64,000 nt of DNA from the NCBI GenBank assembly GCA_948567375.1, contig OX419755.1, positions 63,616,944 through 63,680,943 on the forward strand. The letters are read 5' to 3'. This document shows, in pieces, positions 9,677 through 43,629 of the stretch. The stretch is from Lunularia cruciata. Its lineage: Eukaryota > Streptophyta > Marchantiopsida > Lunulariales > Lunulariaceae. Numbering within the stretch: position 1 is the first letter of the stretch; each line of letters starts with the position of its first letter. The notes under the pieces are model-generated. The model was not told the origin of the DNA. It did not search any database and saw only the letters and a program-made list of their open reading frames with translations. Made by a program: the position numbers and the translations under genes.

Positions 9677-10121
9677 TGTCATGCCATTTATAATATTTAT
9701 ACCTAGATTGCTCAGACTCTAGAGTAGTAGTGTTGGTAGTCAGCAGTATTTTGGTAGTTACTCATATGTTGACAAATAGATTTTGTGTTTAGGGTATTGA
9801 CTACACGGTAGGACCTACCGTCACTTGCACCATTTGGATTGTCAAGTGTGACATCAATTAGACCGTTAGGATTTGAGACCTAGCTCAAGTTCATGGAGTA
9901 TAGTTTCAAAGTGCAGCTCCAAAGAGCTCACTTCTCTAATGTTGAGCCTTCGAGTTCCTGACTAGGGTAGACGGAGATTGACAAGCATCACTTGGATTCT
10001 CTTAGCTAGAGTGGGCATGCTTGATTGTAATTGGTGCCCAATTGTTGGCAGATTATTGAGTGATAGATCAAGTATTGATCTGATTGAGTGTGATTCAAGT
10101 TTTGTAAACAAACTAATTACA

Positions 10122-10175
10122 TCAAAGAAGTGAGGTTAGGGTGAAGTCGGGTGCAGGAATTGAGAGTGTTGATGG
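10122..10175 (+). other. B0 leader, left part
   Basis: Untranslated leader following the B LTR, beginning TCAAAGAAGTG as in B1 (24913) and B2 (35164). It resumes at 15814 after the A1 insertion. No canonical TGG primer site follows the LTR directly; a TGGTATC motif lies about 50 bases in. Confidence 0.6.
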
Positions 10176-10320
10176 TGTAACAATATGGAGTTTAGCGATG
10201 AAGTCAGTCAGGCTTATGAAGTAGCACATAAGACAAATTAACCTAGAATATTCTGGAAGTATCTAGGAAGCGTCTTGGGAAGCTTCCCGGTTAGCTTAGC
10301 TTGCACCTTAAGTAAGTAGC

Positions 10321-15330: not shown

Positions 15331-15379
15331 GACGACCATCCAGGAATTTGAAGCTTCACTGGCAATGAGGATATCACCA

Positions 15380-15397: not shown

Positions 15398-15808
15398 TGT
15401 AACATTATGGAGTTTAGCGATGAAGTCAGTCAGGCTCACGAAGTAACACATAAGACAAATTAGCCTAGAATATTCCGGAAGTATCTAGGAAGCTTCTTGG
15501 GAAGCTTCTTGGTTAGCTTAGCTTGCACCTTAAGTAAGTAGCTTCTAGAAGCTTCCAACTAGCTTAGCTTGCATGCCAAGTAGGCGGCTTCTAGAAAGAA
15601 GCTTCTTGAGAAGCTTCCTAGTTAACTTGGCTTGCACTCTAAGAAAGCGGCTTGAGGAAGCTTCTTGAGAAGCTTCTCAAGGGCCTTGTATGTTACCTAT
15701 AAATACCAAAGCCAAAGCTCATGTAGGCATTCGGAGTTTTCCCTCATTCAAGTGTCCCAATGTGAGTTTCCATTCTCCTATTTCTCTCCTCGGTTTCAAT
15801 CTTTTACA
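15398..15808 (+). repeat. A1 3' LTR (411 bp)
   Basis: Same ends as the 5' LTR. Contains a perfect three-unit site TTCtaGAAgcTTC at 15543-15555 and a near-palindrome GAAgcTTCttgaGAAgcTTC at 15657-15676 above the TATA box. It is followed directly by the target duplication GATGG (15809-15813). Confidence 0.95.
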
Positions 15809-15813
15809 GATGG

Positions 15814-17096
15814 TATCTCCAATACTTGCTGATCGTTGGTAGCTCAATCGGAGTTCAAGTTTTCCCTAGTGTGCAGAAGTTATTTGATTGATGTAGATTT
15901 GGCAACAAGGCAGATGGTGTGTGGAAGTGTTGGCTAAATTTCAAGCAAAGAGAAGTAATTTTATAGTAGTGGTTGTGATTTTGAGCTCAAGAGGTGAAAG
16001 CAAGACCAATCTGGTGCAAGTTGGGCTCAAAAAGTGAAATTGAAGGTGGAGTTGGGAACCCATCTCCGTGAATTTATGATTTGGAGAAACCCGTCTTTTT
16101 GGTGAAACCCGTCTTTTTGCTTGAGTGAAGAGTTAACAGAGGATTTGGCGGTTAGCCAAATTTAGGGGTTTATGTCAAATTTTATGTCAAATTTTTGCTG
16201 GATTTTATGTTAGATTTTGTCCAAATTTGGAGGATTTTTGCTTGTTGGCCAAATCTGGAGGAATTTTGCAAATTTGAGGAGTTTTGCCAAATTTGAAGAT
16301 GGTTCAAAGTGGCAAGAAGAAAGACCTCATTTGAGCATTTAGAGGCTTTGAGGGATAGGGCTATGAGAGGATATGAAGATTTAGATGGGTCATAAAGCCA
16401 GCTTGTTAGCATGAGGCTAGCTACTTTAGAGTAGATTTTGGTCATTGTTTGGCAAATCTGCCCATCTTGTTAGATTGTGCGCAACAAGGTTTGACCCTTA
16501 GATCTTAGGTTCCCTAGATTGGTGCCCTAGCCAACTAGTCCACCCTCACTTGTTGTCCTAGTGATTGTTCCTTTATTATCTATACACATGTAGCTTTGGC
16601 TTGAAGAGATAATTTGATTATATTCTTGGTGATCATGGTAAGCATAGGAAGTAGATAACTCATATTATCCATCAAAATACTAGTGTTGATTTATGAGATG
16701 GAGGGTTTTTGTTTAGATTTCTTGTGATAAGACTCACTCCATTCTTTACTTCCTATTTGTGCACCATGTTTTTGTGAGGTGCCTTGTCTCTAGAGCGTTG
16801 GTGGTTTGGTGTGCTCTCAATAGTGAGGTTGGAGTGATGACTATTCAAACTACCTATGTTTCTCTTTGGTGAGGCAAGAAGTGATGACCTAAAGATTTTG
16901 GGAGTGCGTGTTGTGATGGCAAAGTTACAAGTTGCACTTTCCCTTAGTGTAGTTGTTGTAGTTAGAGCTATGGTAGTCTATGATATTTAGTATGTGCCAT
17001 TGGCAATTGGAGGTGCTGGCACTTGGTGGTGATTTTTGGTGGGTTTACTTGCGGTGATTCCGGTTGCGGGTTGCAATTCTTGGTTACTTTGTCATG
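15814..17096 (+). other. B0 leader, right part
   Basis: Continuation of the long family B leader after A1, alignable with 24970-26245 in B1 and 35220-35986 in B2 (with a deletion in B2). Noncoding as far as I can see. Family B leaders are unusually long, about 1.3 kb. Confidence 0.7.
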
Positions 17097-17745
17097 ATGG
17101 AGTTCTTTGGGGATTTTGGAGGAGATAGCACTACAATATGCAATGCGTTTACAGTGGTGTTTGATTTAGCTTGTATCTGCGGTCCCAATGAGGGAGGAGA
17201 TTGACTCTAGTCAAAGTTTGACAAAAGAGCTGAATTAGTTGAGAGTGCACTTGGTGTGACAACACCGTTATTATGGAGCATGGAAAAGATTTATAGTGCC
17301 TCTAAAGGTCTCAAGTGTTACTCTAGTAGGATGGGTACCATTGAGTTGAATGACTTCATCCAAGAGTTTGATAATTGGTGTGATCTATAGTAGATGCGGA
17401 ACCCAACTTTGTTCATACCCTTCATGCCATGGAAAAGATTATTTCAGCATCTAGAGGGTCCGCCAATGGACAACTACCATAAGTTCAAGAGAGCCTACTT
17501 GGAGGAGATTGAGCTATGGAGATAGTGTTGGTCTCCAAACTATATCTCCATTACTTCAGGCTCGGTTTCTAGGGGTAGATTGGCAGTACTCACAAAACCT
17601 CTAGCTCTAGTAGCATTGGTGGATATCTTGGAGATGGTGCTACTACAAGTAGAGGTACTACAATAGGAAGTGATGTAGTATTGGGGTTTGACCCCATGGT
17701 AGAGTTCTTCTTGTGTTTGAGGCAGAACTACTAAGGAGTGCAGAT
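17097..17745 (+). pseudogene. B0 gag, 5' part
   Basis: Opens with the same ATGGAGTTCTTTGGGGAT start as B1. It contains the gag block found in all B copies (FDNWCDL followed by a stop, LEGPPMDNYHKFKR, EIELW, SPNYISI) with stops where Gln or Trp codons are expected. It ends where the family C LTR begins, just after a purine-rich AGGAGTGCAGAT. Confidence 0.75.
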
Positions 17746-18437: not shown

Positions 18438-18441
18438 TTTT

Positions 18442-21559: not shown

Positions 21560-21599
21560 CAAGTTTGACCGGTAGGGGTGATGGATAAGGTGATAAGCT

Positions 21600-22722
21600 T
21601 ACACTTTCAAGGTCATTGCTTTTGGGCTTTGCAATGCTCTAGCCACATTCCAATGGTTCATGAACAAGGTATTTGAACCTTTCATTGTGAGAGACTTCAT
21701 TGATGACTTTTGTGTCTATGGGAGCAAGGAGGAGCACTTTGAGCATCTAATCAATGCTTGGAGGAGGCAAATGCATCACTCAAACCAAAGAAGTACATTT
21801 TTGGATGTGAAGAAGATCTACTTTTGGGGCATATCATCTCCAAGGATGGAATAGCAATTGATCTTGAGAAAGTGAGGAAAATCTTAGACCTTCCATTCCC
21901 TTCAAGCTTGACAAAGTTACACCAATTCTTGGAGATAGTTGGGTACTATAGGAGGTTTATCTTCTCATTTTCCAACAAAGCTTATGCATTAACCATCTAC
22001 ATGAGGAAGGATGTAGAATACATGGTGATTTTGGAGGACAAAGGGGCTCTCAAAGCTTTTGAGGAGCTCAAGCAATCCCTTGTTGTAGCTCTTGTTCTTG
22101 CTAACTTGATTGGAGTAAGCCTTTCATCCTCTACATTGATGCTTCTAATGTAGCTGTAGGATGCACTCTTAGTCAATTAGACCAAGATAGGCATGATCAT
22201 CTGATAGCTTATGCTAGTAGGCAGATGGTTTCAATAAAAAAGAACTACTCTGTCATGGAGAAAGAAGGCTTGGCAGTGATCTTTGGTCTCAAGAAGTTTA
22301 GACACTACTTGATTGGAGGGAAAGCCACCATTGTCATAGATCACAAGGCTTTGAGGTACATCTTCATCAAGCTTAATGTGGTAGGGAGACTAGCAAGATG
22401 GATGATACTCTTGTCTGAGTATGACTACACCATTGAGGATAGGCCTGGGAAGAAACATGCAAATGCAGATTTGTTATCTAGGGCCTATGATCATGATAGA
22501 GATGAGCCAATAGATGATTCCTTCTTGAATGAAGAGCTCATGACAATCTCAATCACTCAAGAGGTTCCAATGGAGTACAAGGAGATTGTGGATTTTGTGA
22601 CAAGAGGTAACTATCCAGTAGGGATGCAAGCTAGGGAGAGGAAGACCTTTGCAACAAGATCTAGACCTTACACAATGGTGGAGTATATTCTTTTTCATCA
22701 AGGAGCAGATGGTCTACTTTGA
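21600..22722 (+). pseudogene. family C RT (partial) and RNase H
   Basis: RT starts abruptly at FGLCNALATFQ and includes FIDDFCVYG, the polymerase catalytic DD (about 21690-21720). It continues through GHIISKDGI and GYYRRFI. RNase H follows, with DHKALRYIF and the end motif KKHANADLLSR (about 22450-22480). Frames change several times. The fingers and palm N-terminal part of RT is deleted between 21559 and 21600. Confidence 0.82.
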
Positions 22723-23273: not shown

Positions 23274-23771
23274 TATAACAAAATGGAATTTACCAATGAG
23301 TTAGTTGAGACTTACAAAATAGCAAGTTGGCCAAATTAGCCAAGAATCATAAAAGTATTCTAGAAGCATCTAGGAATCTACTTGGTTACCTTCCAATTAA
23401 TGGGTTAATGTCCATACCAAGTGGTGACTTTTAGGGGGAAGTTTCTTGGGAAGCTTCTCGGCTAGCTTAGTTTGCATGCCAAGTAGATTGCTTCTAGAAG
23501 GAAGCTTCCCGACTAGCTTAGCTTGCACATCAAGTAGACATTTTTTAGAAGAAAACTTCTCAAGAAGTTTCCCAATTACTTTGGCTTGCACTCTAAGAAA
23601 GCGGCTTTTAGGAAGCTTCATGAGAAGCTTCTAAAGAACCTTATATGTTTCTTATTAAATAACAAAGCCCAAGCTCATGCTAAGTATTTGGAGTTTCTAT
23701 CATTTGAGAGTCTCAATATGATCTTTCATTCCAATCTTCCATTCTCCTATTTCTCTCCTTGGTGTTTTACA
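23274..23771 (+). repeat. family A host element 5' LTR (498 bp)
   Basis: Starts TATAACAAAATGG, ends TTTTACA, with the usual GAAGCTTC / TTCTAGAAG clusters. Left flank TTACC nearly matches the bases following the 3' LTR at 48284 (TTAAC), so these two LTRs probably bound one insertion. Confidence 0.8.
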
Positions 23772-24291: not shown

Positions 24292-24912
24292 TGTTGTTAT
24301 ATTATTTATAGCGTCACACCTAGATTACTTGGACTCTAGAGTAGTAGTGTTGGTAGTTAGGAGTATTTTGGTAGTTACTCATAGACTGCTTGTTGACGGA
24401 CAGATTTTGTGTTTGGGGTACTGACTACATGGTGGAGCTCGTCGTTACTTGCACCATTTGGACCGTTAGGTGTGCCGTCAATAGGACCTATCATGCCATT
24501 TGTAGTCTTGCATCTAGATTACTCAAACAATGGACTTGCAGTGATAGTAGTTATATGTATTTCAGCAATTTCCCATAGACTACTTTCTGATGGTCAGATT
24601 TTGTGTTCAAGGTATTTACTGTGGGACCCACCATCACTTTGCACCATCAAGTGTGCCATCAGCGTGACTATTAGGATTTCAGACCTACCTCAAGTCCAAG
24701 GGTATACTTTTGAAGTGCATCTCCAGGGAGCTCACTTCTTTGAGTTCTTGGTTATGGTGGACAGAGGCCGGCGAGCGTAACCTTGATTCTCATAGCTAGA
24801 GTAGGTATGGCTTGACTATAAATAGTACCATGTTGTTTGCAATTTATAGAGTGACAGATCAAGTACTTATCTGATTTGAGTTGATTTGAGAGTTGTAAAT
24901 GATCTGATTACA
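24292..24912 (+). repeat. B1 5' LTR (R-U5-like part, 621 bp)
   Basis: Corresponds to the LTR from TGTCATGCC to ATTACA, so it lacks the TATA-bearing first part found in 34242-34348. An internal segment of roughly 170 bases around CACCTAGATTACTTGGACTC is present twice, which explains the greater length. Its left edge is the breakpoint in A gag. Confidence 0.7.
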
Positions 24913-27209: not shown

Positions 27210-27365
27210 TGAGTACTATTGTTGCTTGTTGGACTTGTGGTGGACCTCACCATTGGAGAGAGTGTACTCAGGGCAGTGGACTTGATACCTCTGGTGCATC
27301 ATAGCCAACACAAAGCTAGTGTGAGCATTGCCATAGATTTGGTCACACTAGTGACTTGTGCGTTG
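27210..27365 (+). pseudogene. B1 nucleocapsid: two zinc knuckles
   Basis: CWTCGGPHHWREC at about 27222-27260 and CEHCHRFGHTSDLC at about 27322-27363, both CCHC type, separated by about 20 codons that include one stop. Followed by HPK, typical of the nucleocapsid end of plant gypsy gag. B2 has the same pair near 37110-37250, damaged in the second knuckle. Confidence 0.8.
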
Positions 27366-28200
27366 ACCTACACCCAAAGTTACAAAGTGGTAGGGTTGCA
27401 ATGGTAGGGTTGCAATAGAGGAGCTCTAGTTCATAGAGGAAGAGGTGGTAGAGGTGGTGGTAGAAGATCTACATGTGGTAGAGGTGCACTACTTGCCCTT
27501 ACTTCTGAAATAGCTATGGCTACTCAGATTGAGCAATTGGAGTAGAGATTAGCTTGTATGGCCATTGCTCATAGGAGATCAAATTTGGGTGTTGAGACTT
27601 CCACCTCATATGTTGGTGATAGAGATGCTTTGACTTTATGTGCAAAGCAATATAGGTGGATGTATCTACAATAGTGACTAGGAGTGCAATTCATGCTCCA
27701 AAGCCTAGAGATGCATTAGTGGAGTTGGACCCACAAAGAGAAGAGGTTGGGAGATAAGTTAGATTTCCCCAGTCTTTCATGCTCTCTAAGGCATTGCAGA
27801 CAACATCCATGGCTCCTAGATGTCCCAATGCAAGTGTGGTAGGTGGTGATGGAGTGCATGATATACTACTCGCTAGTCAATCATATGCTACTACACAAAC
27901 TAAGTCTAACATGATGTTGGAGGCGGCTCAGCTGATTATGCGGTGCCCTTTGTTTTCAGCTAGTGATATGTTTACATTGTGAGTTGACCCAACCCCAATG
28001 TTCCGGTTGGCTGCCACGCTTTGTCAGAGTAAGAAAGATGCAGCTCCTACTACTAGAGCAAAGGTGGTTGATAGTGGAGCTGACTTGGTTGGAGCATGGG
28101 ATCCATTTAGCGACCAATGGTTTATGGTAGGCAACAATGGCTAGATTAGAGGAGTTGCCAACTAGACCGGCCTTTGAGAGAGCACGGTTCACACCTGGTG
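27366..28200 (+). pseudogene. B1 region between nucleocapsid and protease
   Basis: Decayed continuation of the polyprotein. It includes a Gly/Arg-rich stretch (about 27420-27490), a conserved block ALVELDPQREEVGR (about 27712-27755) and SNMMLEAAQLIMRCPLFSA (about 27905-27960). All are also in B2 (about 37560-37830). No known domain is recognised; it may be a structural linker or part of a protease prodomain. Confidence 0.55.
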
Positions 28201-28239
28201 TTGTCTTATTGGATAACTAGAGGAGGATTTTCTGTTTGG

Positions 28240-28560
28240 TGGGACCTTTAGAGAAGGTCTATATGCTAGAGAGAGTCTTGTTAGACTTTAATGTATAGCT
28301 CCTTATGTTGGGGAAGGCTGCAGCAATTGGTCTAGAGTTACGGGAGACCGATGTAGAGAGGTGTCCATTTTAGATCTAAACATCTCTAGGTGGTGGTTTG
28401 ACACGATACATCACACATGGGGCTTGTTATCCAAGTTCAGCCTGGTCATCCAATTGATAGCTTGGTGGTGAGAGCTCAGGCTATTGCAATAATAGCTGAG
28501 TCATACGATGTGCTAGTTGGAGGAGCAATGTTATACCCCATGGGTTTCAATATTGACTAT
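28240..28560 (+). pseudogene. B1 aspartic protease
   Basis: Retropepsin-like block: LLD followed by the active-site triad, then LMLGKAAAIGLELRETDVE, SLGGG, and a C-terminal YDVLVGGAMLYPMGFNIDYW. In B1 the triad reads D-F-N (28283-28291, two changes from D-S-G); B2 keeps DSG at 38151-38159. The protease would cut the polyprotein; this copy is inactive. Confidence 0.75.
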
Positions 28561-28998
28561 TGGGAGGAGACAACCTCCTATAGACCAAGTTGGCAGTCTG
28601 GTGAGGGACGGGTATGTCATCCACCAATATGCTTCAATAGTGGCAGTCTTGGCCCACTACAGTGTGAGACCATAGCAATATCAGTTTCAGCTTTTAGTGG
28701 TGCAATTACTTGGCCTGGTGACTTGTTGGAGAGGAACGCCTATGCAAAGGATACTCTAGTTCTAGAGGAGATCACTCGGATTTTGAGTACAAGTGGGATT
28801 GTTCCATCCATCTTGGATGTTCCATTGTGGATTTCAGCGGAGGCATTGCAGTAGCATGCAGATTATTTGGTGCAAAAGGCTTGGAGTGGAGCCTTTGTAC
28901 CATCAGGAGATAAGTGTGAGGATAAGCCTCTAGAGTTGATTACCTTGAAACCTTTGGATACCACACTCATTGCTTGGTAGTATCTAGTAGAGGGGATA
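28561..28998 (+). pseudogene. B1 spacer between protease and methyltransferase
   Basis: Open for a long stretch (part of 28417-28854), with SYRPSWQSGEGR, then AFSGAITWPGDLLERN, EITRILSTSGIVPSI and VPLWISAEALQ. The same blocks are recognisable in B2 (38420-38700). It is therefore a conserved part of the element, but I do not recognise a domain. It may be the N-terminal lead of the methyltransferase. Confidence 0.55.
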
Positions 28999-29985
28999 TG
29001 TCTATTGGAGTTGTTTGGTGGAATTAGCACCAAACTAGCTGCGGTATTACAAGGGGGAATACAAGTACAAAGGTACTTGTATGTGGAGAGAGATGAGACT
29101 ACTAGGCAAGTCTCTCTACATCATGTGGCACACTTGGCCTACTGGTATCCTGAGTTATTACCCATGTCAGCAATCAGAGGTTACCAAAAGGCTCTACCAA
29201 CAAATATTTCCTTACTGGGAGTGCATGATCTAGAGAGATATGGGCTTGTTTACTTGGTGCTTTTTGGATGGCCATGTTAAGGACAAACACATGTTGGCCA
29301 AGGTTTGGATCTTCAAGATCCTCATTCTGTTGTGTTTTGGAAGATGTTACATATACTACAACATCTCCAAGTTCATGAGTCTATTTCTCTAGCTTACATT
29401 TTGGAGAACATTCCTTTGATAGGTGATTCTTGCACCAGAGTGGTGGCAATTACACATTCGGTCTATTCTTAGATGTGACTTGTTGTATTGTTAGATGTAG
29501 CTAGAGTGGGATCACTTGCCTATCATCTTTGTCTTTGGTGGACAAACCTCTTACCCAAAGAGGTTTTATAGTGTGCTTATGATGGGATTCAACAACTTGG
29601 CCACATCTTTGTTGATGATATCTTGGAAGTTGAGTGTTAGTCTCAAGCAACGGTAGTGGCTGATAGGTCATCTATGGTAGTGGTGAACCTAGTTGGATAG
29701 CCTAGAGCCGCATTTCCCACACTCATGAGTTTCCTAGGCTCTCATGCTTTTTGAGAGGAAGGACCTAGATTGGTTTGGGACTCATAGTTAAAGCAATTGG
29801 TGGAGCCCAACATTGATGAGAGAGAGTAGGTGATGGGTTTTTGCACCGGTATTACTACTATTCTAGTAGTGTTAAAGGCATCCAAGCATCAGGTGTTAGG
29901 TCAGGCTATGGACTTGAATTGTTTGACTTGGATTGTGAGCCTTGGCTTTGTAGAGCACTGTAGGATGCACTTGATATGCATCACC
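28999..29985 (+). pseudogene. B1 DNMT3-like cytosine-5 DNA methyltransferase domain
   Basis: In one frame, with C5-methyltransferase motifs in order. Motif I: LLELFGGISTKLAAVL (SAM binding, like DNMT3 LFDGIGT). Motif II region: RYLYVERDE. Motif IV: LFGWPC at about 29260-29277, whose Cys is the catalytic nucleophile; the next codon is TAA (29278) where Gln is expected. Motif VI: LENIP (Glu at 29404). Motif VIII region: ARVGSLAYHLCLWWTNLLP (29500-29556), matching the DNMT3-type end of the core. Motifs IX-X: DERE, stop, VMGF, and VLGQAMDLNCLTWIVS (29815-29940), as DNMT3 has before its C-terminus. It lies between protease and RT in the same polyprotein. It would methylate cytosine using SAM. Several stops make it a pseudogene. 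Confidence 0.85.
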
Positions 29986-30560
29986 ACTCAAACACTTGTG
30001 AGCCATGTGCCTATCGAGACGATCCAAGCACATGCTATGGGCAATAGACCAAGTGGATAGGGTATTCTTGGGATGCAACCAGTGGCTACTAAGGAGAGTG
30101 GTCTACTTGGAGTCCATCTAGGTGAGCGTGGTCTACTTGGCTTACACCCTTGGTCTACTTGGGATGCAGCTAGAGGACGTATGGAGCTTGTAGCTAGATC
30201 AGAGGGAGTTTTTCACATAGAGGTTGGAACCTCTAGTAGTTGGAAGCATGACACTATTGCTCCTAAGGGGCCAATGTAGCAGCCAGTCAGCACGTCTTCC
30301 ACTCTTACTATAGTTACATAGGATACTTGGGAGCCAGATCTTGGACCCAAACTTATAGGAGAGGAAAGATGGAGAGTTTGGAGGTTCTTGAGGAGCTACA
30401 CAAGTTATTTAGCCTTCAATATGAAGGATTTGGGTGCTCTAAAAAGACTTGGTATATGGATTGAGCTGACTAGTGATACACTAATTTTTTGACGTCCTTA
30501 TTGCTATAGTGACATGGAGAGGACATTGATTCAGAGCAAGAATAGAGACCTTTTTGAGGC
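29986..30560 (+). pseudogene. B1 spacer between methyltransferase and RT
   Basis: Contains a short repeated theme GLLGVH / LGERGLLGLHPWSTW (30090-30170), present also in B2 (39920-40000). It then runs into the RT N-terminus (about 30560) through a decayed stretch with EVLEELHKLFSLQYEGFG. No known domain. Confidence 0.5.
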
Positions 30561-31770
30561 TAGTTTGGTAGAGATCTCACATGGAGAGTATGCATTAGCT
30601 ACAGTGATGCCAGCCAAGAAGGATATGCATGACAACTACATAGATATGTAGATGTGGAGATTACTATCCTATCAATTGATAGACCAGAGTTGATCGGTAT
30701 GCCATGCCTACACTGGAGGAGTTTTTGATGCGATTGGGCATGCAAAGGTCTTCAATACTTTGGATCTTTGAGCAAGATATCATCAATTGCCAATCTAGAT
30801 AGCATTCTGGGCTATTGATCCTCACAGTAATGTTATATCAGTGTTATATTAGTGCTATAGGATGTGTTATATTAGTGGAAGTTCTTATTGTTTGGGTTAA
30901 AGAACGTTCCTACCATGTTCTATAGGGTCATGGATAGGATCCTAGCTGGATTGGATTTTTCTCAATATTATATTAAAAACATTTTGGTCTATAGCACTAC
31001 TATGGAGGAGCATGAGAGACAGTTGTTGGAGGTCTTTGAGAGGTTGAGATCTCATAGACTCAAATTACATCTTGGGAAGTGTAGGTTCTTCCATGAGCAA
31101 GTTGAGTATTTGGGTCACACTATCTACCTTAGAGGATTTGGTGTTCAATAGACCAAGGTGGAGGCTATTGTACATATTCCTTAGCTTATGGATGTGAGCA
31201 GAGTGTGAGCATTCCTTGGGTTGGTGAACTTCTATTGCCGCTATGTTAGAGGATTTAGTGTCACTGCCAAGGCCTTGACAAAGTTGACCAAGCTTACACA
31301 AGAGTGGTGTTGGGGAGATGAGCAAGAGAGAGCTTTTGTAGAGCTCAAGGAAAGGTTGACATCTACTTCTATTTTGAGGAGACCGATCAGAGGATGACCA
31401 TTTCAGGTTCATACTGATTGGAGTATGTTGGGGCTTTGAGCAGTACTCACCCAACATGATGATGAGGGGAAGGAGTTTGTAGTGGCCTTATGCTAGTCGC
31501 TCCAACAATTCAGCGGAGGCAAAGTATAGTTCATATGAGGGAGAGTGCTTGGGCAGTAGTTTGGGTAGTAGCTCATTTCCGATGTTACCTATTTGGTAAT
31601 CCCTTTACTCTCATCATTGATCATCAGCCATTGAAGTGGTTGATGGATTCTGACAAGCTTTCAAGGAAGCGTGCACAATGGACTTTGATTTTATAGGAGT
31701 ATGATTTCATGATTGTTCATTGACTTGGAGTGGTGAATGGTGATGCAGATGGGTTAAGTAGAAACCCATG
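30560..31770 (+). pseudogene. B1 reverse transcriptase and RNase H
   Basis: RT blocks include KVFNTLDL, FGLKNVPTMFYRVMDRILAGL, the palm region YYIKNILVYS and VEYLGHTIY. The catalytic DD of Y-x-D-D is changed to K-N (GATGAC to AAAAAC at about 30976). RNase H follows (HTDWSMLGL, a segment with NNSAEAKYSS, then LIIDHQPLKWLMDS and VNGDADGLSRNP, about 31400-31770). Frames switch several times. Typical Ty3/gypsy RT/RH. Confidence 0.85.
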
Positions 31771-31849: not shown

Positions 31850-33600
31850 GCCTTTTTGTGTATATTTTCTAAGGCTTTGGTGGTATCTCTCTCAATGCAT
31901 ATAGGAGGAGTTATTGAGGTCACAGATCTAGAGAGTGAAGATATTGGTACAGTTCAACAATATATTTATGGTGACATCTTAGTGATGGATTATCATGGCA
32001 TTGGTGTTGTAGGTGGCATAGTTAAGGTTAAGGAGAGAGATTGTGTCCTTCAACAAACCACACAATTTAGATTGGAGGGCAAACACCTTTTGCGGGTATA
32101 GGAGGATGGTAGAGTGCAAGTAGTAGTACTACTTCCATCTTAGAGACCATAGTTGGTCCGTCATGCTCATGAGGAGCTAGGACATTTTGGAGTAAAGCAT
32201 ACATATAGCTTACTCCATAGTCATTATTGGTGGTGCAATATGCAGACCAAGGTATAGCATATTTTTGCTAGATATGTGGTTTGTGACCAAGTTAGAGCAT
32301 CATTCAATGCTCCCATGCCACAATTACATCCATTACCTATCATGAGATTGGATTACTATTGGATTTTGGACTTCTTTGGACCTTTACTGCTGACTATAGA
32401 ACATCATCGGTATGTTTTGGTTATGGTAGAGCACTTCTCCAAGTGGATTGAATCTGTGGCACTTCTTGACAAGTCTAGTGAAGGGACAACTTACTTGTTC
32501 TTGGATCATGTTCTTAGTCATTTTGGTATACAAGCCAAGGTTTTGACTGATCTATAATACCCATTTGTGCATGTGTGTGGTATTGTGATATTTAGCTTGG
32601 TATTAAAAGTATTTGAGAGATATCATTTACATAGAGATAAAGGATGTTTCTACATTAGTCATGATTAGCTAAATTTAGTCATAGCTAAGATAGAGGGGAC
32701 TTTACTTTAGAGGAAGTGGAAAAGATGAGCACCACTATTTTAGATTCTAGTGTGTTGACTTGATATTATTCTTAGGTGTTTGGCTTTGAAGAAAGAGTTG
32801 AGAACTCTTGGGCTCGCAAGCCTTTTTGTTTTTGATTCTTCTATAGTCCAAGGATAGCCCATGTGAAGAAATCATTGACTTGGTAGTTGGGTCAAGATAA
32901 GATCACATGCTAGTAATATGCACATGAGAATGGATATTCTTTTCTATTTTTTGACTTTACTTGAATTTTAGTCTAGTAACTTGAGTTACTATGGTAATTA
33001 GTAACTTTGGTTCATAACTATTTCACAAGTATATAAACAAGCGGTGAGGAGGTACTCATTATCCTTTCATTTGCAACTATCTCTCTCATTGAGTTCTCTA
33101 GTGAGCAATGTCTTGAGTCTTGGAGTGTTAGCCTTGGAAGAGTATGATGGAGTTGGGGTTCCTTGCCTTCTTAGTCCATGATGCGCTACCATAATAGCCA
33201 TCAGAGGTTCATCTTGAGTGAGAGACAAGCCGGCTCATAAATCAAGGTACAAATTTCTTGGGAGAGTTTCAAGTCTTGTGTGACAAGGCTTTGATTGATC
33301 ATTGTACTATATCTCAAGATCACTCTAAGGCAGATGGCTTAGTAGAGAGAGTGGTTCAAATGGTGAAGAGAGGATTGCAAAAGTATGGTTTGCAGAGAAA
33401 CCACTTGGGAGATTGGGATCTCCAATTACCTTGGTTGGCCATGGGCTATTGGTTCAGCCAGCAAGCCTCCTTAGCATCTTTCTTTCCTTACTCCCTACTC
33501 TATAGACAAGATCCAAATTTACCAATAGCCATTTGTCAAGATATTATTGTAGTTTTGGACTTGGATGATCCAAATGTATAGATGAGCGCTTATTCTTAAT
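31850..33600 (+). pseudogene. B1 integrase, split by a solo LTR
   Basis: HHCC-like N-terminus (HAHEELGHFGVKH ... VVCDQVRASFNAP), then the catalytic core with Asp in LDFFGPL, Asp in VLTD (about 32545) and Glu in GLVERVVQMVKRG (about 33335). The core is cut at VLTD by the 687-bp family C LTR 32553-33239 and resumes at NFLGEFQVL. The C-terminal part (GDWDLQLPWLAMGYW, LLYRQDPNLP) is typical of gypsy integrases. Confidence 0.85.
32553..33239 (+). mobile_element. solo family C LTR inside B1 integrase
   Basis: Matches 17746-18437 end to end, starting TATAATACCC (one change from TGTAATACCC) and ending CTCATA. Host integrase codons continue on both sides. The flanks GATC and AATC fit a 4-base duplication with one transition. 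A solo LTR of this kind arises by LTR-LTR recombination that removes the internal region. Confidence 0.85.
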
Positions 33601-33751
33601 GAGTAGAGATCTTTCAGAGAGTGATGTTAATGGCTTTTGAGAACTTGGCAATTGCTCAGCATAGAGATACCTTACGCTATGCTACCATTTGAGGAAGAGG
33701 TTATAGACCCTCAATCTGTGAAACTATGTATATCTACTACAGACAACACCA

Positions 33752-34081
33752 ATGACACTTGATGTTTTGATAGGCTGCACTATCTTGAAAGTGCATGAGG
33801 TTTTGCCATCTGGAGTCCTTGTGTTGGAAGGACATGATGGTGTTTGGAAGGATCAAGTGCACAATTATGCGCCATGCCACCTCCCAATCATTGATGGTAC
33901 TATGGACCCAAGCTTGGCACTTGTATGTGCATGCTTGAGGTGTATGTTATGTGGCTCTTTTGGTGGAGTTGCTACTATGTTAGTGTGTGATAGTTGTTCA
34001 AGAGGATGGCATATGGCATGTATGACTCTTCTCCTCACGGTGGTTCCTTAGTGACAATGGTTATGTCCTAGACGTACTTGA
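33752..34081 (+). pseudogene. B1 C-terminal PHD finger
   Basis: After the integrase C-terminal barrel (VLPSGVLVLEGHDGVW, CHLPIIDGTMDPS) the same frame reads a C4HC3 PHD finger: Cys 33941, Cys 33950, eleven residues, CDSCSRGWH, AC, then LTVVP, two stops, QWLCPR and TGA at 34079. The last zinc ligand is Arg in B1 (CGT) and Tyr in B2 (TAT), both one step from a Cys codon TGT. PHD fingers read histone H3 tails; this one resembles plant H3-binding PHD fingers by its GWH and TVVP-QWLCP spacing. The frame ends there, so the PHD finger was the polyprotein C-terminus. Confidence 0.82.
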
Positions 34082-34241
34082 CTTATAGCTATTTCATTCT
34101 TTATATGGTATAGATTGCAGATATGCAACTAACCATAGCACCCGGCCTTTTGATCTTTTGCTCATCATAGGGTATATCATATAATTGAAGTAGATGGCTA
34201 TCTAGAATTAGAGGGATCTAACTGCCAGCTAGGGAGGCAAT

Positions 34242-34796
34242 TGTGGCACTTTAGAGTCTATCTATGACTTATGTGTGAGTTGTGCTTCTATAGTGTATGA
34301 TGTTGACATCAATGTATGTTATGTAGTAATGTATATATGCACAAAAACTGTCATGCAATTTGTAGTGTTGCATCTAGATTGCTTGGACATTGGAGTTGCA
34401 ATGATAGTAGTTAGAAGTATTTCAGCAGTTTCCATAGACTACTTTCCAAGAGTCAAATTTTGTGTTTAGGGTACTAATTCACGGTGTGGCCCACCGTCAC
34501 TTTGCACCGTTTGCACCATCAAGTGTGCCATCAATGGGACCATTAGGGTCTTAGACCTAGCTCAAGTCTAGGGGTATACTTTTGAAGTGCAACTCCCGAG
34601 AGCTCACTTCTTTGATGTTGAGCCTTTGAGTTCTTGGCTATGGTGGACAAAGGCCAATAAGCGTCACATGGATTCTCATAGCTAGAGTGGATGTGACTTG
34701 ACTATAATCAGTACCTAATTATTAGCAATTTATAAAGTGATAGATCAAGTATTGATCTGAGTTGAATTGATTCAAGAGTTGTAAACAATCTGATTA
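34242..34796 (+). repeat. B1 3' LTR (555 bp)
   Basis: Begins TGTGGCACTTTAG after the purine-rich AGGGAGGCAAT and ends CTGATTA. TATATAT near 34331 is a likely TATA box. The same length as the B2 3' LTR (42969-43523). It is followed with one intervening base by a second LTR start. Confidence 0.82.
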
Positions 34797-34797
34797 T

Positions 34798-35163
34798 TGT
34801 GGCACTTTAGAGTATATGTATGACTTATGTGTGAGTTGTGCTTCTATAGTGTATGATGTTGATAGCAATGTATGTTGAGTAGCAGTGTATATATGCACAA
34901 CAAACCGTTAGGGCTTGAGACCTAGCTCAAGTCCATGGGGTATAGTTTCAAGTGTAGCTCCAAAGACCTCACTTCTTTGATGTTGAGCCATTGAGTTCTT
35001 GGCTATGGTGGACAAAGACCAATGAGCATTACCTGGATTCTTTTAGCTAGAAAGTGTGTGGCTTGACTATAATTGGGGTCCAATTGTTAGCTGATTAGTG
35101 AGTGACAGATCAAGTACTGATCTGATTGAGTGTGATTCAAGTTGTGTAAACGAATTGATTACA
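34798..35163 (+). repeat. B2 5' LTR, internally deleted (366 bp)
   Basis: Starts TGTGGCACTTTAG and ends ATTACA, but after GCACAACA (34902) it skips about 190 bases of the normal LTR to ACCGTTAGGG. TATATAT at about 34888 is retained. Confidence 0.8.
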
Positions 35164-38400: not shown

Positions 38401-38852
38401 TTTAATATTGACTATTGGGAGGAGACAACCTCCTATAGAATAGGTTGGCAATTAGGTGAGTGACAAGTATGTTGCCTACTAGTACACTTTAGTAGTGATA
38501 ATCTTGGCTCACTACATTTGGGACCATAGCGGTATCAATTTTAGCTTTCCGTGGTGTTGTTACTTGGCCTGGTGATTTATTGGAGGAGAATATCCATGTC
38601 GAAGATACTCAAGTACCAAAGGAGATCACTCGGATTTGGAGTACAAGTTGGATTGTTCCATCCACCTTGGATGTTCCTTTGTGGAGTTCAGCGGAGTTAT
38701 TGTAGCACTATGCAGATTAGTTGGTGCAACAAGCTTGGAGTGGAGCCATTGTACCACTAGGAGACCAATTTGAAGATGAGCCTCCTAAGTTGATTACCTT
38801 GACACCTTTGGATACCACACTTATTGCTTGGTAGTATCCAATAGAGGGAGTA

Positions 38853-39890
38853 TGTCTATTAGAGTTGTTCAATGGGATTAGCACTTGACTAACTACGATA
38901 CTACAGACGGGTATACAAGTATAGAGATACTTGTATGTAGAGAGAGATGAGACTATTGCATCATGTGGCACACTTGGCCTATTGGTATCTTGAGTTATTA
39001 CCAATGTCAATAGTCAAGGGTTACCAAAAAGCCCTACCAACAAACGTTTCCTTGTTGGGTGCATGATCTAGAGAGACATGGGCCTATTCATTTGGTGATT
39101 TATAGATGGCCATGTTAGGTACATACATGTGTTGGCCAAGGTTTGGGTCTTTAGGATCCCCATTCTAGTGTGTTTTGGGAGATATTATGGATACTACAAC
39201 ATCTTCAAGTTCATCAGTCTGTTTCTCCAACTTACCTTTTGGAGAACTTCCCTTTGATGGGTGAGTCTTGCACTCAAGTGGTGGCAAGTACACATCAGGT
39301 CTATTCTTGGATGGGACCTACCATGTTGTTAGATGTAGCTAGAGTGGGATCACGGGCTCATCATCTTTGTCTTTGGTGGATGAACCTCTTACCTAGAGAG
39401 GTTTTACAATGCTCTTATGATGGGATTCAACAACTAGACCACATCATTGTTGATGACATCTTGGATGTTGAGCATTAGTTTCAGATGGTGGTAGTGGCTA
39501 ATAGGTCACATATGGCAATGGTGAACCTAGATGGATAGCACAGAGCCGCTTTTCCCACACTTATGAGTTTCCTAGGCTCCCATGCTTTTTGAGGAGGTCT
39601 TGGACTTGTTTGGTACTCATAGTTATAGCAATTGGTGGAGCTCAACGCTGATGAGAGAGAGTGGGTGATGGGTTTTTGCACCAGTATTACCAATGTTCCA
39701 GTAGTGTCAAAGGCATCCAAGAGTCAAGTGTTAGATCAAGTTATGGACCTAAATTGTTTGACTTGGATTGTGAGCCTTTGCTTGGTAGAGCAGCGTAGGA
39801 TGCACTTGATAGGTATCACCACTCAAACACTTATAAGCTTTGTGCCTATTGAGATGATTTAGGCACATGTTGGGGGTGATAGACCAAGTA
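38853..39890 (+). pseudogene. B2 DNMT3-like methyltransferase domain
   Basis: Second copy of the methyltransferase. Motif I: LLELFNGIST (38856-38885). RYLYVERDE is followed by a deletion of about 12 bases. Motif IV: RWPC near 39100, followed by TAG at the place B1 has TAA. An open stretch 39170-39478 carries motif VI YLLENF (Glu 39241) and motif VIII ARVGSRAHHLCLWWMNLLP (39338-39394). Motifs IX-X: DEREWVMGF and QVMDLNCLTWIVS (39650-39775). Frameshifts lie near 38960 and 39060. Conservation of motif order in both copies shows that the domain belonged to the element rather than being captured once by accident. Confidence 0.82.
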
Positions 39891-40400
39891 GATAGTGTAT
39901 ACTTGGGACACATCCAATGGCTACTAGGGAGAATGGTCTACTTGGAGTCCATCCAGGTGAGCATGGTCTACTTGGATTACACTCTTGGTCTACTTGAGAT
40001 GTAGCTAGAGGACATATGGAGCTTGCAGCCAGAGTGGAGGGAGTTTTTCACACTGAGGTTGGGACCTCTAATGGTTAGAGAAATGACACTATTGCTCCCA
40101 AGGGCCCAATGTAGCAGCCAATTAGTGCATCTTCTACTCCTCTGATAGTTACAAAGGATACTTGGGAGGAGCCAAATCTTGGACCCAGGCTTATAGGAGG
40201 AGAAAGACAGAGAGTTTGGAGGTTCTTGGGGAGCTACACAAGTTTTTTTTGCCTTTAGTATGAAGGATTATGGTGCTCTAAAAGGAATTGGTATTTGGAT
40301 TGAGCTAACTAGCAATACACTAATTTTCTGACATCCCTATCAATATAGTGACCTGGAAAGAGCATTGATTCAGAGCTAGGGTAGTGACCTTTTTAAGATT
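39891..40400 (+). pseudogene. B2 spacer between methyltransferase and RT
   Basis: Counterpart of B1 29986-30560, including the GLLGVHPGEHGLLGLHSW repeat. No known domain. Confidence 0.5.
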
Positions 40401-41481
40401 GGTTTGGTGGAGATTTTACATGGAGAGTATGCATTAGCTAAAGTGATGTCAACCAAGAAGGATATGTATAGCAACTATACAAATAGGCGGATGTGTAGAA
40501 ATTACCATCTTATCAACCAACATACTAGGGCTGATCAATATGCTATGCCTATATGGGTGGAAATCTTTGATGCGATTAGGCATACAAAGGTCTTTAGTAC
40601 TTTGGATCTTTGAGTAAGATATCATCAATTGCCAATTAGGGAGGGAGATAAGTCCAAGATAACATTTTAGGCTATTGATCCTCATGGCAAGGATGTATTA
40701 TATCAATGGAGGTTCTTACTATTTGGGTTAAAGAATGCTCTTGCTGAGTTCTAGAGGGTCATGGATAGGATCCTAGGTGGATTGGATTTTTCTTGGTGCT
40801 ATATTGATGACATTTTGGTCTATAGCACTATAGTGGAGGAGCATGAGAGAAAGTTGTTGGAGGTGTTTGAAAGGTTGAGATCTCATGGACTCAAATTACA
40901 TCTTGGGAAGTGTAGATTCTTCCATGAGTAGGTTGAGTATTTGGGTCACACTATCTACCCTAGAGGATTTGGTGTTCAGCAGACCAAGGTGGAGGCTATT
41001 TCATGTACTCCTTGACCTACAGATGTGAGAAAATTGCATGCATTCCTTAGGTTGAAAAACTTCTATCACCACTCTATTAGAGGATTTAACACCATTGCCA
41101 AGACTTTGATGAAGTTGACCAAGCTTACACAAAAGTAGTGTTGGGAAGATGAGTAGGAGAGAGATTTTGTAGAGCTCAAGGAGAGGTTGATATTTGCGCT
41201 TATTTTGAGGAGATCGATTAGAGGACTAATATTTCAAGTTCACATTGATTGGAGTATGTTGGAGCTTGGAGTAGTGCTCACCCAACATGATGATGAGGGG
41301 AAGAAGTTTGTGATGGCTTATGCTAGTTGCTCCAACAATTCAATAGAGGCAAAGTATAGTTCATATGAGAGAGAGTGCTTGGCAGCAGTATGGGTAGTAG
41401 CACATTTTTTATGTTACCTATCTGGTAATCTCTTTACTCTTACCATTGATCATTAGCCATTGAAGTGGTTGATGGAGTCCA
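40400..41481 (+). pseudogene. B2 reverse transcriptase and RNase H
   Basis: RT retains YIDDILVYS (about 40800-40826), FGLKNALAEF, LKLHLGKCRFFHE and HTIYPRGFGVQ. RNase H has HIDWSMLELGVVLTQHDDEGK and NNSIEAKYSSYERECLAAVW, then TIDH, stop, PLKWLMES. It stops at 41481, where the family C fragment begins. Confidence 0.85.
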
Positions 41482-41680
41482 ACAAGGGGGTGAGAAGGTA
41501 TTCATCATCCTTTCATTTGCAACTATCTCTCATAGTTCTCTAGTGAGCAATGTCTTGAGTCTTGGAGTGTTAGCCTTGGAGGAGTATGATGGAGCTGGGG
41601 TTCTTTGCCTTCTTAGTACATGGTGCACTACCATAATATCCATTATAGGTTCATCTTGAGTGTGAGATAGGCCGGCTCAC
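41482..41680 (+). repeat. family C LTR fragment in B2
   Basis: Matches the last 200 bases of the family C LTR (GGTGAGAAGGTATTCATC ... GCCGGCTCAC). The left join to RNase H falls in a shared ACAAG. The right join resumes integrase at AAAGCATCATTT, so about 800 bases of B2 (RNase H end to integrase start) are missing. Confidence 0.8.
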
Positions 41681-42640
41681 AAAGCATCATTTAATGCTCC
41701 TATGCCATAGTTACACCCATTACCTATCATGAAGTTGGGTTATCATTGGAGTTTGGACTTTACTAGACCTTTATCATTGACTAAGGGACATCATTGATAC
41801 ATTTTGGTGATGGTGGAGCACTTCTCCAAGTAGATTGAGTTGGTGGATTGAGTTGGTGGCACTTCTTGACAAGTCCAGTGAAGGGACAGCTTACTCGTTC
41901 CTAGATTGGGTTCTCAATCATTTTGGTGCACCAACTAAGTTTTTGACTGATTAGAGTATAGAGTTCTTGGGGGAGTTTCAGGTCTTGTGTGACAAGGCTT
42001 TGAGTGATCATTGTACTACCTTCCGAGATCACCCTGAGGCAAATGGCTTAGCAAAGAGAGTGGTTTAGATAGTGAAGAGAGGACCTCAAAAGTATAGTTT
42101 TCATAGAGGCTACTTGGGAGATTGGGATATCCAATTACCTTGGTTGGCCATGGGCTATTGGTTCAATCGGCAAGCCTCCTTAGCATCCTTACCTTTTACT
42201 CTATGGACACGATCTAGATTTACCTACAGCTATTCACCAAGAAGCTACTATAGTTTTGGACTTGGATGATCTATATCTATGGATGAGCGTATGTTCTCAA
42301 CGTGTAGAGATCTTTTAGAGAGTGATCTTGATGGACTTTGAGAACTTGGCAATTGTTCAACATATGGATACCTTACACTATGTTACTATTCAAGGAGGAG
42401 GCTATAGACCCTTGACCTATAGACTTCATCTAGGTGACTATGTATATTTACAATAGATAGCACCGACAACACATGATGTTTCTACATGCTGGACTATCTT
42501 GAGAGTGCATAAGGTTTTTCCATCTAGAGTCCTTGTGTTAGAAGGAGGTGACGGTGTTGTTTGGAAGGATCATGTGTGCAATTGTGTGCCATGCCACTTC
42601 CCAAACATTAATGGTATGATAGATCTATGCTTGGCAATTG
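41681..42640 (+). pseudogene. B2 integrase
   Basis: Matches the B1 integrase core (SLDFTRPL, ILVMVEHFSK, LGDWDIQLPWLAMGYWFNRQ) and C-terminal part, with frequent frameshifts and stops. The HHCC N-terminus is deleted. Confidence 0.75.
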
Positions 42641-42657
42641 TACGTGTAGGCTTGTAG

Positions 42658-42799
42658 TGTATGTTATGCGGCTCTTCTGGTGGAGCTGCTACTATGTTAG
42701 TGTGTGATAGTTGTTTTGAGAGGATGGCATATGGCATGTATGACTACTCCCCTCATGGTGGTTCCTCAAGTGTAGTGGTTATGTCTTAGATATACTTGA
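42658..42799 (+). pseudogene. B2 C-terminal PHD finger
   Basis: CMLCGSSGGAATMLVCDSC (42658-42714) is intact. A one-base insertion then shifts the frame through the WH-x2-C part, and the end reads C-L-R-Y-T-stop. It occupies exactly the same place as in B1, after the integrase and before the 3' LTR. Confidence 0.8.
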
Positions 42800-42968
42800 C
42801 TTATAGTTAGTTCATCCTTCATATGGTAGAGATTGTAGACAAGCAACTAATGATGGGGCTCAATAGCACCCGGCCTCTTGATCTTTTGCCCACCATAAGT
42901 ATACCTTACACTTGGAGTAGATGGCTTTTTGGAGTTAGAGGGACCTAACCACCAACTAGGAGGGCAAT

Positions 42969-43523
42969 TGTGATACTTTAGAGTCCATATATGACTTATG
43001 TGTGAGTTGTGCTTCTATAGTGTGTGATGTTGACAACAATGTATGTTGTGTAGCGATGTATATATGCACAATAGTTGTCATGCCATTTGTAGCATTGCAC
43101 CTAGATTGCTTGGACTCTAAAGTAGTAGTATTGATAGTGATGAGTATTTTAGTAGTTACTCATATACTACTTGTTGACGGATAGATTTTGTGTTTGGGGT
43201 ATTGACTACACGGTAGGGCCCATCATCACTTGTACCATTTGGACCGTCGGGTGTGCCATCAATGAGACCATTAGGGTTTGAGACCTAACTCGAGTCCATG
43301 GAGTATAGTTTTGAACTGTAGATTCAGAGAGTTCACTTCTCTGGTTGAGCCTTCTAGTTCCAGGCTATGATGGACAAAGGCCAATGAGTGTCACTTGGAT
43401 TCTTTTAGCTAGATTGGGTGTGGCTTGATTGTAATTGGTGCCTAGTTGTTTGCAAATTACTGAGTGACAAATCAAGTACTTATTTGATTGAGGGTGATTT
43501 GAGTTGTGTAAACAAACTGATTA
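42969..43523 (+). repeat. B2 3' LTR (555 bp)
   Basis: TGTGATACTTTAG to CTGATTA, after the purine-rich AGGAGGGCAAT. TATATAT near 43060. It is followed with one base between by another LTR start at 43525. Confidence 0.82.
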
Positions 43524-43524
43524 T

Positions 43525-43629
43525 TGTGGTATTTTAGAGTCCATGTATGACTTATGTGTGAGTTTTTTTTCTATAGTGTGTGATTTTGATAGCAATGTAT
43601 GTTTTGTAGCAATGTATATATGCACAATA
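43525..43629 (+). repeat. third B LTR start, cut at the U3 end
   Basis: About 105 bases TGTGGTATTTTAG ... TATATATGCACAATA, the promoter-bearing first part of a B LTR. It stops at the point where the 5' B LTRs at 9677 and 24292 begin. The next base is A-family gag. Confidence 0.75.

What the first reader, a model, noticed from the sequence alone, without database searches (positions are those of the whole stretch)
28999..29985. DNMT3-like DNA methyltransferase encoded inside a Ty3/gypsy polyprotein (B1)
Seen: C5-methyltransferase motifs I (LLELFGGIST), IV (GWPC), VI (LENIP), VIII (ending LWWTNLLP) and IX-X (VMGF ... LNCLTWIVS) in order and in one frame, between an aspartic protease and a reverse transcriptase. 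Known: the motif VIII and X forms resemble the DNMT3 branch. Methyltransferase-bearing retrotransposons were, as I recall, reported in dinoflagellates and charophyte algae. Inferred: in life the element could have methylated its own cDNA or genomic copies, to hide from or exploit host silencing.
Basis: partly seen in the sequence, partly recalled or inferred. Interest (0 to 1): 0.95.

Follow-up and report, generated by a model that had tools for sequence, protein, structure and literature searches.

The report
Retrotransposon carrying a DNA methyltransferase
The window holds two decayed copies of a plant jumping gene that carries its own DNA-methylating enzyme and a chromatin-reading finger, and younger copies, many with an unbroken enzyme gene, sit elsewhere in the same genome.

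Summary
The finding is real. Window 28942-29985 is a DNMT3-like cytosine methyltransferase (MTase) between an aspartic protease and a reverse transcriptase. It is a pseudogene (10 in-frame stops); a second copy lies about 9.8 kb downstream. Named relatives come from liverworts and Sphagnum, with more distant ones in Mesostigma, Chromochloris and Haematococcus. One search of the window's own genome (566 Mb) returned 111 full-length or nearly full-length MTase matches (a lower bound), 66 without stops; 48 studied differ by about 1%. In all 10 copies examined further, ORF2 had at least one premature stop.

New relative to what I could read: (1) ORF1 (gag-protease-MTase) ends at a conserved UAG-CAG-CCA, a TMV-type leaky-stop context, before an in-frame ORF2, so the MTase would be made at Gag level. 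(2) ORF2 ends in a PHD finger. (3) DIRS-like split direct repeats occur with 4-bp target duplications and a DDE integrase; this repeat layout was published for Klebsormidium KnitGypsy-Dnmt3. (4) A chlorophyte-type branch has the MTase after RNase H, with the same PHD.

Most likely the MTase travels with Gag and methylates the element's own cDNA or insertion; that step is inferred.

The parts
24491..24910 (+). B1 copy: 5' repeat A1 of the split direct repeats
   Evidence: 76.6% identity to A1 of younger copy L015
24911..26345 (+). B1 copy: leader between A1 and gag
   Evidence: 81% identity to leader of younger copy L015
26336..27022 (+). B1 copy: gag
   Evidence: tblastn Marchantia P0147, 55%, 4.5e-70
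27224..27382 (+). B1 copy: zinc-knuckle region
   Evidence: tblastn P0147, 54%, 6e-13
28125..28815 (+). B1 copy: aspartic protease region
   Evidence: tblastn P0150, two frames, 1e-46
28942..29985 (+). B1 copy: DNMT3-like C5-MTase, pseudogene with 10 in-frame stops
30277..30279 (+). B1 copy: conserved UAG (TAG CAG CCA) that ends ORF1 in the family
30328..31205 (+). B1 copy: reverse transcriptase
   Evidence: tblastn P0150/P0158
31209..31738 (+). B1 copy: RNase H
   Evidence: tblastn P0158, 5e-58
32108..33919 (+). B1 copy: integrase (H2C2, DDE core, C part), interrupted by a ~690-bp insert at about 32552-33243
33890..34078 (+). B1 copy: PHD finger
   Evidence: tblastn Marchantia P0184 63%, 2e-21; alignment
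34240..34342 (+). B1 copy: repeat B, first copy
   Evidence: 92% to B of younger copy L016
34349..34796 (+). B1 copy: repeat A2
   Evidence: 83%
34796..34902 (+). B1 copy: repeat B, second copy; end of element
   Evidence: 92%
34904..35161 (+). B2 copy: 5'-truncated repeat A1 (match starts at A position 192)
38796..39883 (+). B2 copy: MTase, frameshifted pseudogene
40112..40114 (+). B2 copy: conserved UAG (TAG CAG CCA)
40248..41486 (+). B2 copy: RT and RNase H
41681..42636 (+). B2 copy: integrase remnant
42607..42796 (+). B2 copy: PHD finger (two frames)
42967..43625 (+). B2 copy: repeats B (42967-43069), A2 (43076-43523), B (43523-43625)
9677..10176 (+). B0 copy: repeat A1 and leader start, cut by later insertions
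15811..17743 (+). B0 copy: leader and gag remnant; no MTase match there

Best explanation
SHOWN: the window carries two old, dead copies (B1, B2) of a ~10-kb Ty3/gypsy-type retrotransposon: A1 - leader - ORF1 (gag, zinc knuckle, protease, DNMT3-like MTase) - UAG CAG CCA - ORF2 (RT, RNase H, DDE integrase, PHD finger) - B - A2 - B. The same family amplified recently in this genome, and many of its MTase frames are unbroken. INFERRED: the MTase is made as the C-terminal part of the Gag precursor, so it is packed into the particle in large amount, while RT-integrase-PHD is made as a minor product by reading through the leaky UAG. In the particle or nucleus the MTase methylates the element's own double-stranded cDNA or the fresh insertion (probably at CG), and the PHD finger on the integrase binds histone H3 tails (probably H3 unmethylated at K4) and steers integration to silent chromatin, where a pre-methylated insert does little harm and draws less attention.
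For: MTase identity and context. Catalytic residues kept in relatives: of 175 rows, motif IV Cys in 122 of 125 with a letter there, motif VI Glu in 144 and Asn in 155 of 156. Recent amplification: 111 matches, 66 without internal stop by my count of the rows; 48 MTase copies 0.6-2.7% from a reference copy, median 1.0%; A1/A2 divergence 0.007-0.018 in 8 of 10 copies. Selection: MTase variants shared by 4 or more of 48 copies are 17 synonymous to 11 nonsynonymous (0.39 nonsynonymous, 0.63 expected, 4 of 1000 permutations as low); singletons 54 to 91; Fisher p=0.034. TAG CAG in 34 of 34 younger copies, with CCA in 33 and CCT in one, and TAG CAG CCA in both old copies. ORF1 ends at clade-typical distances after the MTase in relatives. 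PHD in 10 of 10 relatives that run far enough past the integrase core and 10 of 10 genomic copies; profile matches include KDM5A, PHF21A, BAZ2, UHRF1 and AIRE, readers of unmodified H3K4 (recalled). Retroelement DNMT3s of Symbiodinium DIRS methylate CG de novo in yeast (PMC5890265 section 10).
Against: No activity, packaging, readthrough or histone-binding data exist for this family. All 10 copies examined have at least one premature stop in ORF2, and 4 of 10 have stops in the MTase frame within or near gag, so no complete copy was seen; copies had been chosen by their MTase, not at random. The K. nitens enzyme gave no methylation in yeast (called inconclusive by its authors). CpG depletion of B1/B2 (o/e 0.11-0.23) is matched or exceeded by neighbours without an MTase (0.04-0.45). 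B1 against B2 shows no purifying selection. The selection signal among younger copies is modest, and copies were picked by score and mostly for lack of stops. No RNA structure downstream of the UAG (z=+1.3). The best PHD matches are MLL3 and KMT2D, so the mark read is unsure.
Confidence: 0.5

Rival explanations
1. Self-restraint: the MTase methylates new copies so that they are silenced, slowing transposition and sparing the host, so that lineages with it persist longer.
For: Conserved catalytic residues are compatible; offered as one option in the discussion of PMC5890265 (section 11).
Against: The family amplified recently here, which strong self-restraint does not predict. Not tested.
Confidence: 0.2
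2. Host-directed effector: the MTase acts in trans on host loci to blunt silencing.
For: Gag-level expression would give much enzyme (inferred).
Against: No evidence of a host target; K. nitens with such elements has a methylome like that of land plants (PMC5890265 section 9).
Confidence: 0.1
3. RNA-directed or structural role: the domain methylates or binds the element's RNA rather than DNA.
For: It sits in the Gag precursor, with zinc knuckles; RNA was considered for the LINE type in PMC5890265.
Against: The nearest solved relatives are DNMT3 DNA enzymes; the tRNA enzyme DNMT2 scores lower (1e-5 against 1e-13).
Confidence: 0.1
4. On origin: the streptophyte-type (MTase after protease) and chlorophyte-type (MTase after RNase H) elements captured host DNMT3 genes independently, into related PHD-bearing gypsy elements.
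For: The MTase sits at two different places; independent capture is the published view for K. nitens against Symbiodinium.
Against: The MTases form one family by profile and split into the same two groups as RT; against Marchantia P0150 the chlorophyte-type MTases are 33-39% and their RT-RNase H 34-50% identical.
Confidence: 0.4
5. Bacterial contaminant or a host DNMT gene beside a retroelement.
For: One hit carries a bacterial MAG label (P0100).
Against: 10 of 10 genomic copies examined have the MTase embedded in the element; no relative confirmed in GTDB contigs by a one-pattern scan.
Confidence: 0.01

Closest known systems
KnitGypsy-Dnmt3 of Klebsormidium nitens (de Mendoza et al. 2018, PMC5890265; outline, sections 9, 10, 11 and passages seen)
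   Same: Gypsy domains with an embedded non-rearranged Dnmt3-type MTase; repeats arranged as in DIRS elements but domains of gypsy (Fig. 4 legend).
   Different: There the MTase is described within the Pol polyprotein ORF; here it ends ORF1 (gag-protease-MTase) before a conserved UAG. PHD is not mentioned in the main text (0 occurrences; figures and supplements not seen). The host here groups with bryophyte elements. No K. nitens sequence could be compared.
SymbioDIRS-Dnmt3 and SymbioLINE-Dnmt of Symbiodinium (PMC5890265)
   Same: DNMT-bearing retrotransposons; split repeats in the DIRS type; SymbioDIRS DNMTs methylate CG in yeast.
   Different: Tyrosine recombinase (DIRS) or endonuclease (LINE) elements; here a DDE integrase with 4-bp target duplications.
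DNMT3A/DNMT3B
   Same: Best profile match among solved structures, canonical motif order.
   Different: Motif IV here is PCQG, in DNMT3A PCND; the PHD lies on the integrase, in the other ORF.
Chromoviruses (gypsy elements with a chromodomain on the integrase; recalled)
   Same: A histone-reading module at the C end of the integrase.
   Different: Here it is a PHD finger (PF00628 in relatives), and the element also carries an MTase.

Membership tests
Ty3/gypsy retrotransposon | order protease - RT - RNase H - integrase | tested here: met
Ty3/gypsy retrotransposon | DDE integrase and short target-site duplication | tested here: met
   PF00665 in relatives; 4-bp duplications, read by eye, in 6 of 8 copies inspected, the 3' ends of the other 2 not located by the script
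Ty3/gypsy retrotransposon | two identical long terminal repeats | tested here: not met
   Repeats are A1 ... B-A2-B: 5 of 5 copies examined and window B1; so gypsy by proteins, not by repeats
DIRS-order elements | split direct repeats | tested here: met
DIRS-order elements | tyrosine recombinase, no target duplication | tested here: not met
   DDE integrase and duplications; no tyrosine recombinase was searched for as such
KnitGypsy-Dnmt3-like elements | gypsy proteins + Dnmt3-type MTase + DIRS-like repeats | tested here: met
   against the description
KnitGypsy-Dnmt3-like elements | sequence grouping with K. nitens copies | not testable with these tools
DNMT3 family | best match to DNMT3 among C5-MTases, motifs I-X in canonical order | tested here: met
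   (among solved structures)
DNMT3 family | grouping with host DNMT3 genes in a tree | tested here: inconclusive
   only DNMT3A pieces were available as outgroup, on an end branch of 3.01
C5-MTase, active | catalytic Cys, ENV, motif VIII Arg kept | tested here: met
   in most relatives; motif VIII Arg lost in both window copies, which are dead
PHD finger | C4HC3 zinc ligands | tested here: met
   PF00628 hits; the last Cys is lost in window B1

The most novel reading that the evidence does not exclude
A single, very old lineage of gypsy retrotransposons carried both a DNA-methylation writer (MTase) and a histone reader (PHD) before chlorophytes and streptophytes split; it amplified recently in a liverwort-like plant, delivers the writer at Gag level through a TMV-type leaky stop, and combines split direct repeats with a DDE integrase. 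The K. nitens element would then be a branch of it and not a separate capture.
Probability: 0.4. Interest if true: 0.9.

Novelty: new variant of a known kind. Interest (0 to 1): 0.8.

Why it matters
It moves DNMT-bearing retrotransposons from two algal cases to a broad green-plant family that amplified recently in what is probably a land-plant genome, so why a transposon should carry the kind of enzyme that silences transposons can be studied in tractable plants (Marchantia has annotated relatives). Gag-level expression through a leaky stop, together with a PHD finger on the integrase, gives concrete testable predictions: methylated particle DNA, and targeting by histone state. Split repeats with a DDE integrase and target duplications also pose a question about how such cDNA is made.

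Tried and rejected
Rejected: bacterial contamination (short-pattern scans); ordinary host DRM/CMT gene (embedded in 10 of 10 copies; canonical motif order). Rejected: my first reading of the repeats as ordinary LTRs shared by tandem copies; searches show split direct repeats, so the 'LTR' rows are superseded names. Led nowhere: strand-biased decay (C/T 349 and A/G 369 differences); selection in B1 against B2 (MTase 0.650 against 0.683 expected, 91 of 500 permutations as low; a frame-shifted control gave 8 of 500, and integrase and PHD lay above expectation, so the test is noisy); downstream RNA structure; Rfam and tRNA scans (nothing); PDB search of two flanking ORFs (nothing); structure prediction (off); host DNMT3 gene (search did not complete). 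The amino-acid identity printed (23 of 364) is an offset artefact and is not used. Rows dropped: in the 133-row tree unnamed rows under 240 aa; and 129 rows were hand-picked. In one search rows of unknown layout were labelled as the first type, so its count of one change is not an independent test. P0185 and P0177 are long or partial rows, and RT support for the first type is only 83/77.

Literature: 10 searches. Only PMC5890265 describes DNMT-bearing retrotransposons in detail (outline, sections 9, 10, 11 and passages). Passages alone were seen of PMC12344493 (which cites it), PMC11244446, PMC9998398, PMC6453930 and PMC8616336; the rest as listings. None of what I saw describes such elements in bryophytes or with a PHD finger. 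Most subscription papers are not held.

Full report
OBSERVATION. A relative (P0001) matches window 28867-29958 on the + strand in one frame at 57% identity over 367 aa, E=1.8e-132; a second copy follows about 9.8 kb downstream in three frames. Ten in-frame stops interrupt the first copy, and the two motif VIII arginines are His and Cys: the window copies are dead. The read-through itself gives no Pfam hit and only a weak DNMT3A hit (E=0.59), so the assignment depends on relatives.

WHAT IT IS. Protein searches found 61, 643 (120 listed) and 55 relatives. P0001 hits PF00145 at 6e-11 (4 of 8 relatives hit it; some of the others are partial). A profile of 24 relatives finds DNMT3A first (1e-13), then DNMT3B (6e-12), DRM (7e-7), DNMT2 (1e-5) and HhaI (3e-4) among solved structures; the unnamed chlorophyte-type P0180 alone also finds DNMT3A first (5e-6). 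Motif order is canonical, not DRM-rearranged. No relative was confirmed in GTDB contigs (0 of 9 pattern matches) or IMG/VR (0 of 36); these scans used one and two short patterns.

ELEMENT ANATOMY. tblastn with pieces of relatives maps gag, zinc knuckle, protease, MTase, RT, RNase H, integrase and a PHD finger in order in both window copies (coordinates in the parts list). The window lies in a 565.8-Mb genome of 74 contigs, at C1:63616944-63680943. One search there returned 111 MTase matches, full-length or nearly so, at 72-74% identity to P0001, a lower bound; 66 of the 111 rows show no internal stop by my count. Ten of these copies, chosen for long open frames around the MTase or high score and fetched as separate pieces, all show gag, zinc knuckle, protease, RT, RNase H, integrase and PHD around the MTase. 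None of the ten is complete: ORF2 has at least one premature stop in 10 of 10, and the MTase frame has stops within or near gag in 4 of 10.

TWO ORFs AND A LEAKY-STOP CONTEXT. In 10 of 10 copies the first in-frame stop after the MTase lies 316 nt beyond the match. Its context is TAG CAG CCA in 13 of 14 copies (the other is CCT) and in 20 of 20 further copies, and also in the old copies B1 (30277) and B2 (40112). UAG-CAR-YYA is the TMV-type readthrough context (recalled). The younger copies are near-identical and so not independent; the old copies are the better evidence (B1 against a younger copy: K80 0.154 in the MTase). In relatives the protein ends at a clade-typical distance after motif X: 92 aa in nine rows with bryophyte-type endings (including Calypogeia and Sphagnum), 90 in Marchantia P0147, 108 in eight rows of another clade, 136-141 in several of a third. 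Some relatives (P0177, P0185) run on into RT without a stop, and some annotated Marchantia models continue into RT, perhaps as predicted gene models (inference). No special RNA fold was found downstream.

REPEATS. The ends are not plain LTRs. In 5 of 5 copies examined a 449-bp repeat A occurs at the 5' end and again near the 3' end, where a 107-110-bp repeat B lies on both sides of it: A1 ... B-A2-B. The termini read TGTC...GACA, and in 6 of 8 copies inspected a perfect 4-bp target duplication, read by eye, flanks A1 and the last B; the 3' ends of the other two were not located by the script. In two of the ten copies no A1/A2 pair was found in the fetched pieces. B1 in the window has the same layout, and B2 the same 3' end with a truncated A1. 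This is the split-direct-repeat layout of DIRS elements joined to a DDE integrase. The legend of Fig. 4 in PMC5890265 says the same of KnitGypsy-Dnmt3, which argues for common descent.

AGE AND SELECTION. A1/A2 divergence is 0.0067-0.018 in 8 of 10 copies, i.e. about 0.5-1.3 Myr at an assumed 7e-9 per site per year; for B1 it is 0.183, about 13 Myr at that rate, with its B repeats giving about 6. Among 48 MTase copies (the 8 best-scoring and 40 more chosen for lack of stops, out of 111), variants shared by at least 4 copies are 17 synonymous and 11 nonsynonymous, singletons 54 and 91; 4 of 1000 permutations are as low as the shared class (38 of 1000 for singletons, 105 for variants in 2-3 copies), Fisher p=0.034. 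RT to PHD in 10 copies shows the same direction (single 27 syn, 69 nonsyn, 17 stop; shared 16, 9, 2). This is modest support for selection on the replicating lineage. B1 against B2 shows none, as expected of two dead copies.

PHD FINGER. It occurs in 10 of 10 relatives that extend well past the integrase core; P0175 and P0192 end too soon to tell. Its profile matches PHD fingers of MLL3, KMT2D, CHD4, KDM5A, ATXR5, PHF21A, BAZ2 and UHRF1 (60 of 106 hits shown); several of these read unmodified H3K4 (recalled). One chlorophyte-type protein (P0181) has a PTM/DIR17-type Tudor domain after it.

TWO TYPES, ONE FAMILY. In 6 of the 17 proteins where both domains could be placed the MTase precedes RT; in 11 it follows RNase H. 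The 12 proteins of the second type (one without RT in view) form one side of a branch in the MTase tree (100/99), and the 10 with usable RT rows group in the RT tree (93/97); the first type is held by 83/77. Only Chromochloris and Haematococcus are named in the second type; Marchantia, Sphagnum, Riccia, Calypogeia and Mesostigma show the first layout or protease followed by MTase. Against Marchantia P0150, the second type's MTases are 33-39% and RT-RNase H 34-50% identical. Whether the MTase moved once or was captured twice cannot be decided without host DNMT3 genes.

MECHANISM. Shown: anatomy, unbroken MTase frames in many younger copies, conserved catalytic residues, conserved UAG context, target duplications. 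Inferred: Gag-level packaging of the MTase, methylation of own cDNA or insert, PHD-guided integration. CpG depletion of B1/B2 (0.11-0.23) is not special: neighbours without MTase reach 0.04-0.45, gene-like flanks 0.75-0.76.

KNOWN AND NEW. Known: DNMT-bearing retrotransposons in Symbiodinium and K. nitens, with purifying selection and, for the DIRS type, CG methylation in yeast (PMC5890265). Not seen in my ten literature searches: bryophyte or chlorophyte members, the PHD finger, the ORF1 position with leaky-stop context. Hence a new variant of a known kind.

HOST. Unnamed. Eight contigs of 60-85 Mb make up 558 of 566 Mb (lengths), and the family's MTase groups with liverwort and Sphagnum elements; a bryophyte, perhaps a liverwort, is likely but not shown.

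Noticed in passing
window 12394-15500 and 44755-47867: A second gypsy-type element without an MTase match, present twice (77.7% identical), RT/RNase H at 12429-13834.
   Followed up: partly
window 20236-22722: Another gypsy-like remnant with gag zinc knuckle, aspartic protease (Pfam, below cut-off) and RNase H, with CpG o/e of only 0.04.
   Followed up: no
window 32552-33243 and 17748-18438: A ~690-bp repeat (89% identical) inserted in the integrase of B1 and present beside the gag remnant of B0; its end also in B2 (41481-41686).
   Followed up: no
window 8841-8956, 10265-10468, 15488-15676, 23449-23559, 48013-48144, 54295-54447: A recurring GGAAGCTTCTTG-rich minisatellite-like repeat of about 46-63 bp period.
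   Followed up: no
window 1666-3960 (-): Two ORFs that recall the plant protein CPR5 (from memory; no Pfam or PDB hit for the 505-aa ORF).
   Followed up: no
window 60114-61679 (+): A 521-aa Arg/Ser-rich ORF of splicing-factor look (no Pfam or PDB hit), with an internal 63-bp tandem repeat.
   Followed up: no
L028 3600-5378: One younger copy ends in B-A-B-A-B-A-B, three A units at 557-bp spacing: tandem growth of the 3' repeat unit.
   Followed up: partly
P0100: A relative labelled as from a 'Candidatus Obscuribacterales' MAG groups inside the plant-type MTases; probably a misbinned eukaryotic contig.
   Followed up: no
P0181 1191-1239: A Tudor domain (PTM/DIR17 type) follows the PHD finger in a chlorophyte-type element.
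   Followed up: no
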